DNA of 55,414 nt from Bacillus sp. 103mf (lineage in GTDB: Bacteria; Bacillota; Bacilli; Bacillales; Bacillaceae_G), in NCBI RefSeq assembly GCF_900116295.1, contig NZ_FPAF01000019.1:1-55414 (forward strand). Reading direction: 5' to 3'. The number at the start of each line of letters is the position of its first letter. Position 1 is the stretch's first letter. Of the stretch, positions 1-34,289 are shown piece by piece. The position numbers and the translations under genes are program-made. The notes under the pieces were generated by a model that was given only the letters and a program-made list of their open reading frames with translations, made no database searches and was not told the origin of the DNA.

Positions 1-56
1 TGTACGAATGGAAGTAGTCCACCTACAAATTTTAAAACAGCCATTGCGATTGCCAT
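1..56 (-). CDS. Short amphipathic peptide, copy 1 (partial, runs off the window)
   Basis: The reading frame starts at ATG 56 and is cut by the window edge after 18 codons. The visible product is identical to the first 18 residues of the peptide encoded at 136-216; only one silent base differs. A strong Shine-Dalgarno GAGGAGG lies about 7 bases upstream. The sequence begins MAIAMAVLKFVGG and is hydrophobic with a single Lys in the visible part. It lies downstream of copy 2 on the same strand and probably shares its promoter. The function is unknown to me. Size and composition recall leaderless bacteriocins and phenol-soluble modulins, but no specific family was recognised. Confidence 0.65.
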   Translation of the reverse strand, partial: MAIAMAVLKFVGGLLPFV

Positions 57-135
57 AATGTTTCCTCCTCTGGTCTGTACATCAATTCATCTTTGCTATA
101 CAGATCATTTTTATAAATGATTGCTGAATATGAAC

Positions 136-216
136 TTACATAAATGCTTTTAAAAGCTCTTGTACGAATGGAAGTAATCCACCTACAAATTTTAAAACAG
201 CCATTGCGATTGCCAT
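136..216 (-). CDS. Short amphipathic peptide, copy 2 (26 residues)
   Basis: A complete 26-codon frame starts at ATG 216 and ends with TAA at 136-138. It is preceded by GAGGAGG at ideal spacing. The peptide starts MAIAMAVLKFVGG, has a central Pro at residue 16 and ends VQELLKAFM. Hydrophobic residues alternate with a few charged ones (K9, E20, K23), as in a membrane-active helix-hinge-helix. No signal peptide cleavage motif or double-glycine leader is present. Conservation of protein and SD between the two copies, with a silent change, argues that these are real genes. A sigma-A promoter and CcpA operator lie directly upstream. Candidate roles are a toxin, leaderless bacteriocin or modulin; this is inference. 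Confidence 0.72.
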   Translation of the reverse strand: MAIAMAVLKFVGGLLPFVQELLKAFM

Positions 217-268
217 ATGATTTCCTCCTCTTTTGTGGTATTACGATGTGTTTCATCTTTATACTCTT

Positions 269-297
269 ATTATAGTAAGCGCTTACATTTTTATCAA
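269..297 (-). promoter_or_regulatory. Sigma-A promoter of the peptide genes
   Basis: On the minus strand TTGATA (292-297) is followed by a 17-base spacer and a perfect TATAAT (269-274), about 50 bases upstream of the copy 2 start codon. The spacer is filled by the palindromic cre site described separately, so CcpA binding would block RNA polymerase. Confidence 0.8.
274..287. promoter_or_regulatory. CcpA (cre) operator
   Basis: The 12-base perfect palindrome GTAAGCGCTTAC (275-286) fits the cre consensus TGWAANCGNTNWCA with one end mismatch. It lies exactly between the -35 and -10 of the peptide promoter, which predicts catabolite repression. Confidence 0.75.
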
Positions 298-334
298 CAC
301 ATTTTAATATGCAATATTACATATTAAAATGTGT
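297..334. repeat. Perfect 15-bp inverted repeat next to the peptide promoter
   Basis: Arms at 297-311 and 320-334 are exact reverse complements separated by 8 bases. The repeat touches the -35 box of the peptide promoter. It could be an operator for a second regulator or an AT-rich hairpin; it lacks a T-run typical of a terminator. Confidence 0.6.
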
Positions 335-771
335 TTCAAATTCTCTTCCTTTTCTATGTGTTCATAGATTAAGTGATATAGGGAAATCTTGATACGTATA
401 CAAAGCCGTTCTATATATAAATGACTAATTTTTTCATCCTCTTGTACCTAAGCTTTTGTACTATTATGTATACTACTTAATAAGAAAATAGATAAGGGGA
501 GTGAAGGGCGTATGAGATATTTAAAAATTACAAATCCCCCCTAGGAAATTTTGGTGATTCAACTTTAACAAAAGATTCAGAGTAACTCCAGTTTATAAGG
601 TTTACTCTATTGTGGCGTTTGTATCTTGAATTCAAGAATAGAAAAATTGTTGACAAGCATAGTGATTGTTTGAGTAAACAATTTGTTACGCAATATATAA
701 TTTGTTATTTTTAAATAGAGGATTGTAGGTTATGTATATATCGTTATAATAAAATAGTGGGAAGTTTTTAT
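335..771. other. Intergenic stretch with decayed sequence
   Basis: No complete gene is seen. A frame at 512-544 has a good ribosome binding site (aaggggag) but stops after 10 codons at a run of six C; one extra base would extend it by 14 codons. A small palindrome attgttt-gagt-aaacaat lies at 665-682, just after a TTGACA at 650-655. A TATAAT at 745-750 may serve the downstream sequence. Confidence 0.4.
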
Positions 772-849
772 TTGAAAACATTTCAACCTATAAAGGAATT
801 TAATGTGAATCCAAGTACGATGGAGTTTCAAGAAGAGGGGGAAAAGTAA
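772..849 (+). pseudogene. Possible remnant of a GntR-type (YtrA-like) regulator
   Basis: A TTG-initiated 25-codon frame encodes KEFNVNPSTMEFQEEGEK near its end, which resembles the winged-helix segment of short GntR regulators (typically ...NVNPNTV...ELE.EG). The remainder of such a protein is absent. The match is short, so this is a tentative call from pattern only. Confidence 0.3.
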
Positions 850-913
850 GTGATTTTAGTTTAGGCTTAATGGCTGTTTATAAAATTGTTGTTGTCGATA
901 AAGGAGTTTTAAC

Positions 914-2149
914 ATGGACAAAGCTCATATACTTATACAAGAGGAAGTTAAAGCGTTAAAGCTTTTTTTAAGTTTATTTTATGTAATCTTCTTCTTGAGT
1001 GATATCCTGTATTATTATTTTTATCCAAAAGTGCAAATGGGAGATAGCGATATAGGTTTTCCAGAAGGTGGTTTAGGATTCTGGATGTATCCTTTTATGT
1101 TTTTATTGTTGTTAATTGCTATCTATTTTATAAAAAAGAAAAATATATATATTGTAAAATATATTATTTTTATAGGATATATTTTTATTGAGTTTATTGA
1201 TAATATAATGATTTATTATGGCACTACAAAACCATTTGACAGTGGTAATGCAGTAGAACCGTTTTTATTTTTATTTTCTCCTATTTTTGTAAATAAACGC
1301 TATTTTCGGATCGTGTCACTTGGGATTGTTGGAAAGTATGCCATTTTAGGAATCATGTTACATGCACCAATTGTAATTGTACCTATTGTGCTATGTGTAA
1401 GTTTTGCAACTATCGCGTTTATTCTGTTAACACGTTTTCAATCGTACATATGCACAATTGAAAACATGTTTGAAGAAGCACAACAAGCTGAAAAATTAGC
1501 AGTCATCGGAAAAATGGCGACTACGATTGCACATGAAATACGCAATCCATTAACATCATTAAAAGGCTTTACGCAGATGCAGAGAGAAAAGCACCCTGAA
1601 GATGTAGAATACTATAACATCATGGTGCAGGAAATTGAACGTATGAATGCGATTGTTAGTGAATTAATGGTTCTTGGAAAACCGAAAAAGAGACACTATA
1701 CATTACATAATATAAAAGATATTTTATATTATGTGATTTCGATTGTAGAACAGACAGCTGCTCAATATGGTATTACAATTTCAACAATGTTTGTTAAAGA
1801 ATTACCTTCTATAAAATGTGATGAAAAACAGATGAAACAAGTATTTCTTAATATTATTAAAAATGCGATAGAATCTATGCCTGGCGGCGGTAATATTATT
1901 GTGGAAGCGAATAGAGTTCATGGTGATCAGGTTGTAGTGAGTGTGATTGATGAAGGGTGCGGGATGGAGCAAGAGAAAATAGATAAAATAGGTGAAGCTT
2001 TTTATACGACAAAGGAAAATGGAACAGGTTTAGGTTTAATGGTTACATATAAAATTCTTGAAGAACATCAAGGTGAAATGGAATTTGAAAGCAGACTTGG
2101 TATCGGGACAAAGGTAAATATTAAGTTGCCGGTAGGAGAAGTGAATTAA
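914..2149 (+). CDS. Membrane sensor histidine kinase (sporulation-kinase-like)
   Basis: This 411-residue protein has several N-terminal membrane segments (about residues 15-36, 57-73, 80-100, 115-125, 133-173). They are followed by a HisKA domain with phospho-acceptor His207 in IAHEIRNPLTSLKGF, and a HATPase_c domain with the N box (NIIKNAIESM), the G1 box (DEGCGM) and a glycine-rich G2 segment (GTGLGLM). There is no PAS or HAMP domain and no neighbouring response regulator, so it is an orphan kinase. The architecture is that of B. subtilis KinB or KinD-type kinases feeding the Spo0 phosphorelay; which one cannot be decided here. The start ATG follows AAGGAG at good spacing. A strong terminator follows directly. 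Confidence 0.85.
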   Translation: MDKAHILIQEEVKALKLFLSLFYVIFFLSDILYYYFYPKVQMGDSDIGFPEGGLGFWMYPFMFLLLLIAIYFIKKKNIYIVKYIIFIGYIFIEFIDNIMIYYGTTKPFDSGNAVEPFLFLFSPIFVNKRYFRIVSLGIVGKYAILGIMLHAPIVIVPIVLCVSFATIAFILLTRFQSYICTIENMFEEAQQAEKLAVIGKMATTIAHEIRNPLTSLKGFTQMQREKHPEDVEYYNIMVQEIERMNAIVSELMVLGKPKKRHYTLHNIKDILYYVISIVEQTAAQYGITISTMFVKELPSIKCDEKQMKQVFLNIIKNAIESMPGGGNIIVEANRVHGDQVVVSVIDEGCGMEQEKIDKIGEAFYTTKENGTGLGLMVTYKILEEHQGEMEFESRLGIGTKVNIKLPVGEVN

Positions 2150-33540: not shown

Positions 33541-33719
33541 TGCTTGTAAATTTTTTGTATCTTTGTCGCAATTTTATACGAGAAATAAGTTGTCTTTGTT
33601 ATTATGGATATATGTACCCTTACATACTCTTGCTTATAACTTCAACATTGACTAGGGTCATAGGTTCTATAATGAATATAATTACTCTCCATCCTTAGAA
33701 AGGAGATGGTATTTTATCT

Positions 33720-34289
33720 ATGGAAATTGAAAATCTAATTCCAGTAAAATCGAGGAAAAATTTGAGGATTTGGCTACAGGAAAATTGTAATACTGAAAAA
33801 CTTTGTTGGGTAGTAGTTAGTATGAAACCAACCCCAGATACGTTGCTATATTTGGACGCGGTCGAAGAATCTTTGTGCTTTGGATGGATTGATGGAGTCA
33901 AAAAGAAAATATCTGAAACCCAACTAGCGCAGAGACTGTCTCCTAGAAGTAAAAAAAGTTCATGGACTGAATTGAATAAAGAACGTGTCCGCCGCCTCGA
34001 AAAGTTGGGCTTAATGAGAAACGAAGGAATAAGGGTACTTCCTGATATGGATTACGATTCTTTTAAAATAGATAGGGTTATAGAGCAAAGGCTAAAAGAG
34101 GATAAGCAAGTATATGAGAATTTTTTAGCATTTCCAGCTCTTTATAAAAAAATTCGGATTGACACGATACAAAGCAATAAAAATCAGCCAGAATTATTTA
34201 AGAGTAGATTAGACAAATTTATAGCAAACACTAAAGAAAATAAAATGTACGGTCAATGGAATGATAATGGACGCCTACTAGATTATTAA
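33720..34289 (+). CDS. YdeI/OmdA family protein
   Basis: The 189-residue protein matches the YdeI / OmpD-associated group: N-terminal RKNLRIWLQENC, the core YLDAVEESLCFGWIDGVKKK (about residues 42-61), then LAQRLSPRSKKSSWTELNKERVRRLEKLGLM split over residues 68-100 and a C-terminal helix set. Members are linked to peptide or bacteriocin resistance in some bacteria, but the biochemical function is not established. The ribosome binding site AAAGGAGATGG lies 10-15 bases before ATG 33720. It stands alone. Confidence 0.75.
   Translation: MEIENLIPVKSRKNLRIWLQENCNTEKLCWVVVSMKPTPDTLLYLDAVEESLCFGWIDGVKKKISETQLAQRLSPRSKKSSWTELNKERVRRLEKLGLMRNEGIRVLPDMDYDSFKIDRVIEQRLKEDKQVYENFLAFPALYKKIRIDTIQSNKNQPELFKSRLDKFIANTKENKMYGQWNDNGRLLDY

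What the first reader, a model, noticed from the sequence alone, without database searches (positions are those of the whole stretch)
1..334. Tandem 26-residue amphipathic peptide genes under a CcpA-filled promoter
Two copies of the same tiny gene, each with an ideal GAGGAGG site, differ in the visible part only at a silent base, so selection on the peptide is likely. The sole promoter has a consensus -35/-10 whose 17-base spacer is a cre palindrome, predicting strong glucose repression. Size, lack of a leader, and hydrophobic/Lys/Glu pattern recall leaderless bacteriocins or modulins, but I do not recognise the family. Genes of this size are usually missed in annotation. More copies may lie beyond the left edge.
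Basis: partly seen in the sequence, partly recalled or inferred. Interest (0 to 1): 0.72.

Follow-up and report, generated by a model that had tools for sequence, protein, structure and literature searches.

The report
Known PlcR-controlled small peptide gene pair
These are two tandem copies of spp, a 26-residue membrane-type peptide gene described in the Bacillus cereus group in 2007 and switched on there by the PlcR quorum-sensing regulator; what is new here is that look-alike genes turn up well outside that group and mostly lack the cleavage motif on which the published secretion model rests.

Summary
On the minus strand, copy 1 (216-136) encodes MAIAMAVLKFVGGLLPFVQELLKAFM and copy 2 (56-1) is cut by the window edge; their 56 shared coding bases differ at one silent base. 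Each has a GAGGAGG site; the promoter has a cre-like palindrome in its spacer.

New here: (1) tandem arrays, 2 copies here and 3 and 5 on Bacillus arachidis plasmids, the 5-copy one just ahead of a cytolysin gene; (2) 21 matching places in 18 genomes outside the B. cereus group, all 26 codons; the 2007 paper reported none; (3) 18 of those 21 places (9 of 12 distinct peptides) lack the GG pair, against the published double-glycine leader model. I favour a full-length, leaderless, membrane-acting peptide.

Secretion, cytolysin synergy and glucose repression remain untested.

The parts
136..216 (-). spp copy 1, 26 codons plus TAA, MAIAMAVLKFVGGLLPFVQELLKAFM
   Evidence: 81% identical to Spp1 of B. 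cereus ATCC 14579 as printed in PMC1913518
1..56 (-). spp copy 2, cut by the window edge (18 codons visible)
   Evidence: one silent difference from copy 1 in 56 shared coding bases
224..230 (-). ribosome site GAGGAGG of copy 1
64..70 (-). ribosome site GAGGAGG of copy 2
269..297 (-). sigma-A-type promoter TTGATA-17-TATAAT
273..288 (-). cre-like site ATGTAAGCGCTTACTA, in the spacer and overlapping the -10 by two bases
   Evidence: function not tested
308..323 (-). perfect PlcR box TATGTAATATTGCATA, 10 bp upstream of the -35
   Evidence: consensus from PMC1913518 and PMC2464732
296..335 (.). 40-nt inverted repeat, 95% complementary, centred on the PlcR box
57..135 (-). spacer between the two copies (includes the copy 2 ribosome site), with weak hairpins
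   Evidence: one search folded 66-135 only: z-score -0.83, not significant

Best explanation
The locus is a tandem pair of spp genes of the Bacillus cereus group (membership about 0.97). At entry to stationary phase PlcR, activated by its signal peptide PapR, binds the box at 308-323 and drives a transcript carrying both copies. A cre site within the promoter core probably lowers it when glucose is present (inferred). Each copy makes a 26-residue, very hydrophobic, amphipathic peptide with a G12-x-x-[IL]15-P16 hinge. My preferred mechanism (about 0.55) is that the whole 26-mer is the active form: made without a leader, exported or released by an unknown route, and inserted in the membranes of neighbouring cells, alongside the secreted cytolysin and enzymes of the PlcR regulon. 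Tandem copies raise the dose. Shown here: family, PlcR box, tandem arrays, amino-acid-level conservation between distant relatives. Shown by others for B. cereus ATCC 14579: PlcR-dependent transcription, weak antibacterial activity of synthetic peptide. Inferred: co-transcription of the two window copies, export, full-length action, glucose control, dose.
For: Family: 81% identity with Spp1 without gaps, GG at 12-13, PlcR box 91 nt before the ATG. Architecture: PlcR box in 5 of 5 cereus-type loci compared (window plus 4 on B. arachidis plasmids), 10 bp before the -35 in the 4 of 5 where the strict promoter pattern matched. Of the 87 loci then held, 11 have the PlcR box, all of them stretches around those B. 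arachidis spp places. Operon context: 5 tandem copies, then a thiol-activated cytolysin gene, on plasmid NZ_CP127374.1. Full-length action: 21 of 21 strong places outside the group are exactly 26 codons, and 18 of 21 (9 of 12 distinct peptides) lack GG at 12-13. Amphipathicity: for 17 of 17 distinct peptides the helical moment is reached by at most 1.65% of 2000 composition shuffles.
Against: In the 2007 assays the C-terminal 13-mer was more active than the 26-mer and millimolar doses were needed; the authors could not exclude a plain hydrophobicity effect and had no proof of secretion. Net charge ranges from -3 to +1 over 17 peptides, unlike typical cationic antimicrobial peptides (recalled). 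No constant neighbour was seen at 11 loci outside the group: ABC-transporter ATPases lie near 2 of them (L077, L078), unrelated enzymes near others, so no exporter or immunity gene is identified. Among B. arachidis paralogues amino-acid changes are not always fewer than silent ones (for example 6.5 against 1.5). The cytolysin-linked locus lacks a perfect cre. 10 of the 18 places without GG are nearly identical peptides of one family of genomes, so they are few independent losses. All cereus-type peptides read here keep GG, which could matter within that group.
Confidence: 0.6

Rival explanations
1. Double-glycine bacteriocin, as proposed in 2007: residues 1-13 are a leader, an ABC transporter cuts after GG, and the 13-residue tail kills other bacteria.
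For: GG at 12-13 in the window and in all cereus-type copies read; synthetic 13-mer more active than the 26-mer.
Against: 18 of 21 places outside the group (9 of 12 distinct peptides) have GA, GD, GE, GS or SE at 12-13 while the 26-codon length is kept. No transporter with a peptidase domain was found: of ten frames scanned against Pfam (nine of them neighbours outside the group) three had ABC domains and none a cysteine-peptidase domain; other neighbours were judged by eye only.
Confidence: 0.17
2. Small hydrophobic toxin of the type I toxin-antitoxin kind, acting on the producer's own membrane, with tandem copies as in Ibs or Ldr loci (recalled comparison).
For: Very hydrophobic, sometimes anionic, genes without fixed neighbours, tandem copies in more than one lineage.
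Against: PlcR-driven and co-transcribed with a secreted cytolysin in B. cereus. No Rfam antisense family reaches its threshold over window 1-1000; the one weak hit, RNA-OUT at E 0.055, is below gathering. Promoter-like sites over window 1-1000, both strands together, are near chance (7 found, 5.9 expected). The 5' region with copy 1 does not fold better than shuffles (z -0.30).
Confidence: 0.1
3. The small frame is mainly a regulatory leader peptide or RNA element for the cytolysin gene downstream, and the stand-alone copies are duplicates without a product role.
For: One copy precedes the cytolysin gene in every strain of the 2007 paper that has spp, and here on one plasmid.
Against: The other three B. 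arachidis places show no annotated cytolysin in the stretches read; conservation is at amino-acid level between distant relatives; five tandem copies would be a strange attenuator.
Confidence: 0.05

Closest known systems
Spp / Sppc1-3 of Bacillus cereus (Brillard & Lereclus 2007, PMC1913518, parts 1-3 of 4 read; Gohar et al. 2008, PMC2464732, passages)
   Same: 26 residues, GG at 12-13, 81% identity to Spp1, PlcR box about 100 nt upstream, consensus promoter, multicopy, poorly annotated
   Different: Two copies in tandem behind one promoter; the parts of the 2007 paper read describe up to three copies per genome, with pep2 and pep3 elsewhere on the chromosome, and mention no tandem array
Staphylococcal phenol-soluble modulins and delta-lysin (recalled, not compared by sequence)
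   Same: Short leaderless amphipathic peptides under quorum-sensing control, several genes together
   Different: No sequence relation tested; their exporter was not looked for here
Leaderless bacteriocins such as the aureocin A70 type (recalled)
   Same: No leader, several similar small peptides in one operon
   Different: Those are longer and strongly cationic with nearby transporter genes (recall); here charge is -3 to +1 and no constant neighbour was seen

Membership tests
Spp (small PlcR-regulated peptide) | 26-residue peptide similar to MEIAMAVLKFVGGVIPLIQELLKAFM | tested here: met
   81% identity, same length, no gap
Spp (small PlcR-regulated peptide) | Double glycine at positions 12-13 | tested here: met
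   Present in the window; absent from 18 of 21 matching places outside the group
Spp (small PlcR-regulated peptide) | PlcR box about 100 nt upstream, consensus -35/-10 | tested here: met
   Perfect box 91 nt before the ATG, 10 bp before the -35
Spp (small PlcR-regulated peptide) | Transcription depends on PlcR | not testable with these tools
   Shown for three ATCC 14579 genes by others
Spp (small PlcR-regulated peptide) | One copy in each genome lies upstream of a cholesterol-dependent cytolysin gene | tested here: inconclusive
   Window ends at the left edge and no genome is held; seen on a B. arachidis plasmid
Double-glycine leader bacteriocin | GG cleavage motif conserved through the family | tested here: not met
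   GG in 8 of 17 distinct peptides, 3 of 12 outside the group; met in every cereus-type peptide read
Double-glycine leader bacteriocin | Dedicated ABC transporter with peptidase domain | tested here: inconclusive
   None among ten frames scanned; other neighbours by eye; distant genes not searched
Phenol-soluble modulins | Sequence or exporter homology | not tested
   No Pfam or NCBIfam family matched the peptides; no direct comparison made

The most novel reading that the evidence does not exclude
Spp is one branch of a scattered family of leaderless, exactly 26-residue membrane peptides across several lineages of Bacilli. PlcR control, the cytolysin link and perhaps the GG pair would be features of the B. 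cereus branch, and the shared function would be a full-length secreted membrane-active peptide, a Bacillus counterpart of staphylococcal modulins with an exporter still to be found.
Probability: 0.4. Interest if true: 0.6.

Novelty: new member of a known kind. Interest (0 to 1): 0.4.

Why it matters
The window itself adds a tandem form of a known, little-studied gene family. The wider result changes the picture of that family: it is not confined to the B. cereus group, and its supposed processing site is mostly not kept outside it, so the 2007 working model (13-residue product after GG cleavage) should be tested against a full-length product. The peptides matched no Pfam or NCBIfam model, so annotation pipelines are likely to miss them.

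Tried and rejected
Pfam and NCBIfam scans of the window peptide and of four relatives: no family. PHROGs and PADLOC were not searched. Phage records (tblastn) and viral contigs (pattern): no match. The genome contigs pattern scan gave one locus, in Fictibacillus macauensis; no B. cereus-group genome appeared although the group carries spp, so that group is probably not open to this search and its absence says nothing. Primers of the 2007 paper against the window: best match 6 mismatches, several equal chance places, so the window locus could not be matched to spp1, spp2 or spp3 of ATCC 14579. RNA structure of the 5' region and of part of the spacer: no signal. The Rfam hit RNA-OUT (E 0.055, below gathering) covers the inverted repeat around the PlcR box and is put down to it. 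Neighbours outside the group: 11 loci read by eye, nothing constant; loci L046 and L047 were fetched but their neighbours not read; nine neighbouring frames scanned with Pfam gave two ABC ATPases of ordinary size, one two-domain ABC protein with no membrane part matched, two glycosidases, one MFS transporter, one M3 oligopeptidase, one SnoaL-like protein and one without a match above cut-off. Of the 11 weak matches (E 0.017-0.098) three were read, none of 26-codon form; eight were not read. Selection tests within arrays are uninformative because the copies are too similar. In one search the rows with window copy 2 were read out of frame by my script and are discarded. Structure prediction was not run (the peptide is below the 30-residue limit).

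Full report
WHAT IS THERE. The minus strand of window 1-340 carries an inverted repeat around a PlcR box (323-308), a promoter TTGATA-17-TATAAT (297-269) whose spacer region holds a cre-like palindrome (288-273), then spp copy 1 (216-136) and, 160 nt on, spp copy 2 (56-1, cut by the edge). Copy 1 encodes MAIAMAVLKFVGGLLPFVQELLKAFM. The 56 coding bases shared with copy 2 differ at one silent base. The PlcR box pattern is expected 0.12 times in the window; it occurs twice, the other at 33611. The cre pattern alone is not rare (28 of 100 shuffles had one), so only its place in the promoter makes it noteworthy.

WHAT IT IS. A literature search for PlcR and small peptides listed PMC1913518, of which I read parts 1-3 of 4. 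It describes a 26-residue peptide gene, multicopy in the B. cereus group, with one copy upstream of the cytolysin gene in all genomes that have it; a PlcR box (TATGNAN4TNCATA) about 100 nt upstream; no predicted signal peptide; GG at 12-13; PlcR-dependent lacZ expression of three copies; and antibacterial activity of synthetic peptides at millimolar dose, the 13-mer being stronger than the 26-mer. The printed Spp1 is 81% identical to the window peptide without gaps. PMC2464732 (passages only) lists sppc1-3 in the PlcR regulon and says they are wrongly annotated in ATCC 14579. The window is therefore an Spp locus.

RELATED CEREUS-TYPE LOCI. tblastn against 72,556 plasmid records found 3 records, all Bacillus arachidis YX15, with 10 places in all and no annotated gene under the 3 best places (that gene table is incomplete). 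They form a 3-copy array with 146-nt period, a 5-copy array with 163-nt period directly before a thiol-activated cytolysin gene, and two single copies. The PlcR box is present in 5 of 5 cereus-type loci compared (window included). In 4 of 5 it lies 10 bp before a matched -35/-10 and the perfect cre is present. The fifth, cytolysin-linked, has a changed cre and did not match the strict promoter pattern. The five promoters are recent relatives, so this conservation is not independent evidence for cre function. In the cytolysin-linked locus the palindrome keeps its AAGCGCTT core with both outer bases changed, which may mean weaker CcpA binding there (inference).

THE FAMILY OUTSIDE THE B. CEREUS GROUP. 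The 2007 paper found none. A degenerate pattern over genome contigs gave one locus, in Fictibacillus macauensis (MHIALAILKFIGGIIPLVTDLIKSLV after GAGGAGG). A 7-row profile over 398 genomes of its class gave 25 genomes at E up to 0.1: 14 at 2.2e-6 or better, the Fictibacillus seed among them, and 11 weak (0.017-0.098). A 10-row profile over 397 genomes of the seed's order gave 5 genomes with 8 places at E up to 0.01, the seed again among them. A 17-row profile gave 13 of 39 genomes in the family of G144 (all 13 already seen), 5 of 249 in the order of G437 (the same five genomes), 1 of 2 in the family of G437, 1 of 3 in the family of G453, and 1 of 348, the seed itself, in a phylum-wide draw. 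So the family is patchy and absent from most genomes drawn. Counted once each, the strong places are 21 in 18 genomes. A recount read 21 of 21 as exactly 26 codons from start to stop, 20 with ATG and 1 with GTG, with a purine-rich stretch before the start that looks weaker in two. One genome has two copies in tandem, 165 nt apart. To check that they lie outside the B. cereus group I searched a 388-residue window protein (DltB-like by eye) in all 18: best identity 59% in Fictibacillus, 29-35% (partial matches) in 13, none in 4, and loci of several have 40-53% G+C against 36.0% for the window. As control for the profile, the same 17 peptides spelled backwards over the 398 class genomes gave 18 genomes at E up to 0.1, best 0.017, none at 0.01 or better. 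This control is matched to the 17-row profile, whereas the forward run on that draw used 7 rows.

WHAT THE FAMILY SHOWS. In 17 distinct peptides M1, A4, L8, F10, P16 and L21 are invariant, and A6, G12 and I15 nearly so. Position 13 is G in 8 of 17, and in 3 of 12 outside the cereus group; by place, 18 of 21 lack the GG pair. Ten of those 18 are nearly identical GD peptides from one family of genomes, so the number of independent changes is smaller than 18. A double-glycine cleavage site would be expected to persist, so the finding favours a full-length product. It does not prove one, since some transporter-peptidases accept GA or GS (recalled). Charge runs from -3 to +1, and the helical moment exceeds that of shuffled sequences in all 17 (reached by at most 1.65% of 2000 shuffles). 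Among the B. arachidis paralogues this is not seen in every pair (for example 1.5 silent against 6.5 amino-acid changes), so some copies may be relaxed or diversifying. Of 87 loci held, the 11 with a PlcR box are all stretches around the B. arachidis spp places, so PlcR control looks like a feature of the cereus lineage. Neighbouring frames differ between lineages and show no constant partner by eye at 11 loci. Pfam on nine of them found ABC-transporter ATPases about 1.2 kb (L077) and 0.4 kb (L078) from the peptide gene, a two-domain ABC protein beside another (L080), and otherwise unrelated proteins. The two ATPases could be exporters, but such genes are common and nothing ties them to the peptide.

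REGULATION BY GLUCOSE. PMC2358912 (passages only) reports a B. cereus CRE consensus WWGWAARCGWWWWCAW and higher expression of the nhe and hbl enterotoxin operons, which also have PlcR sites, without CcpA. The window site matches 14 of 16 or 15 of 16 depending on strand. So dual control by PlcR and CcpA is plausible and has precedent, but it is untested for spp.

MECHANISM AND VERDICT. Membership in Spp is about 0.97 likely. For mechanism I give 0.55 to a full-length leaderless membrane-active peptide exported or released at stationary phase, 0.17 to the published GG-cleavage bacteriocin, 0.1 to an intracellular type I-like toxin, 0.05 to a regulatory leader, and the rest to none of these. The submitted confidence of 0.6 is a compromise between the near-certain family call and the uncertain mechanism. 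On later work: the phrase 'small PlcR-regulated peptide' occurred, among the 20 of 40 papers listed, only in the 2007 paper; (5 papers) gave the regulon paper and one review that names the peptides (passages) besides three unrelated papers; one search gave the regulon paper alone. The other listed papers were not opened for Spp. The window peptide and four short strings of the family occur in no paper of the library; a 13-residue string of Spp1 occurs only in the 2007 paper. The library holds open-licence papers only, so absence there is weak evidence.

Noticed in passing
33611-33626: A second perfect PlcR box (TATGTACCCTTACATA) lies about 95 bp upstream of a 189-residue frame at 33720-34289; it may or may not be active.
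   Followed up: partly
296-335: A 40-nt, 95% complementary inverted repeat is centred on the PlcR box, longer than the box itself; folded as RNA it is far more stable than shuffles (z -7.28).
   Followed up: partly
914-2149: A 411-residue frame on the plus strand, divergent from the spp pair, is a membrane sensor histidine kinase by Pfam (MASE12, HisKA, HATPase_c).
   Followed up: partly
L001 4510-4644 and L005 41-175: The same annotated 44-residue hypothetical protein (WP_286015199.1) lies near and divergent from the spp genes on two B. arachidis plasmids; no copy in the window or in the other stretches compared. It could be a partner or just shared flank.
   Followed up: partly
L001 5260-5314 and L002 283-337: The last spp copy on two B. 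arachidis plasmids is followed by a 23-24 nt inverted repeat and then a terminator-like GGGACTTTTTT (by eye); the window spacer holds a decayed version of the same hairpin (by eye).
   Followed up: partly
L003 116-685 with L004 1-400: B. arachidis YX15 plasmid unnamed2 has five tandem spp copies between a PlcR box and a thiol-activated cytolysin gene, an expansion of the published spp1-clo arrangement.
   Followed up: yes
   Followed up: partly
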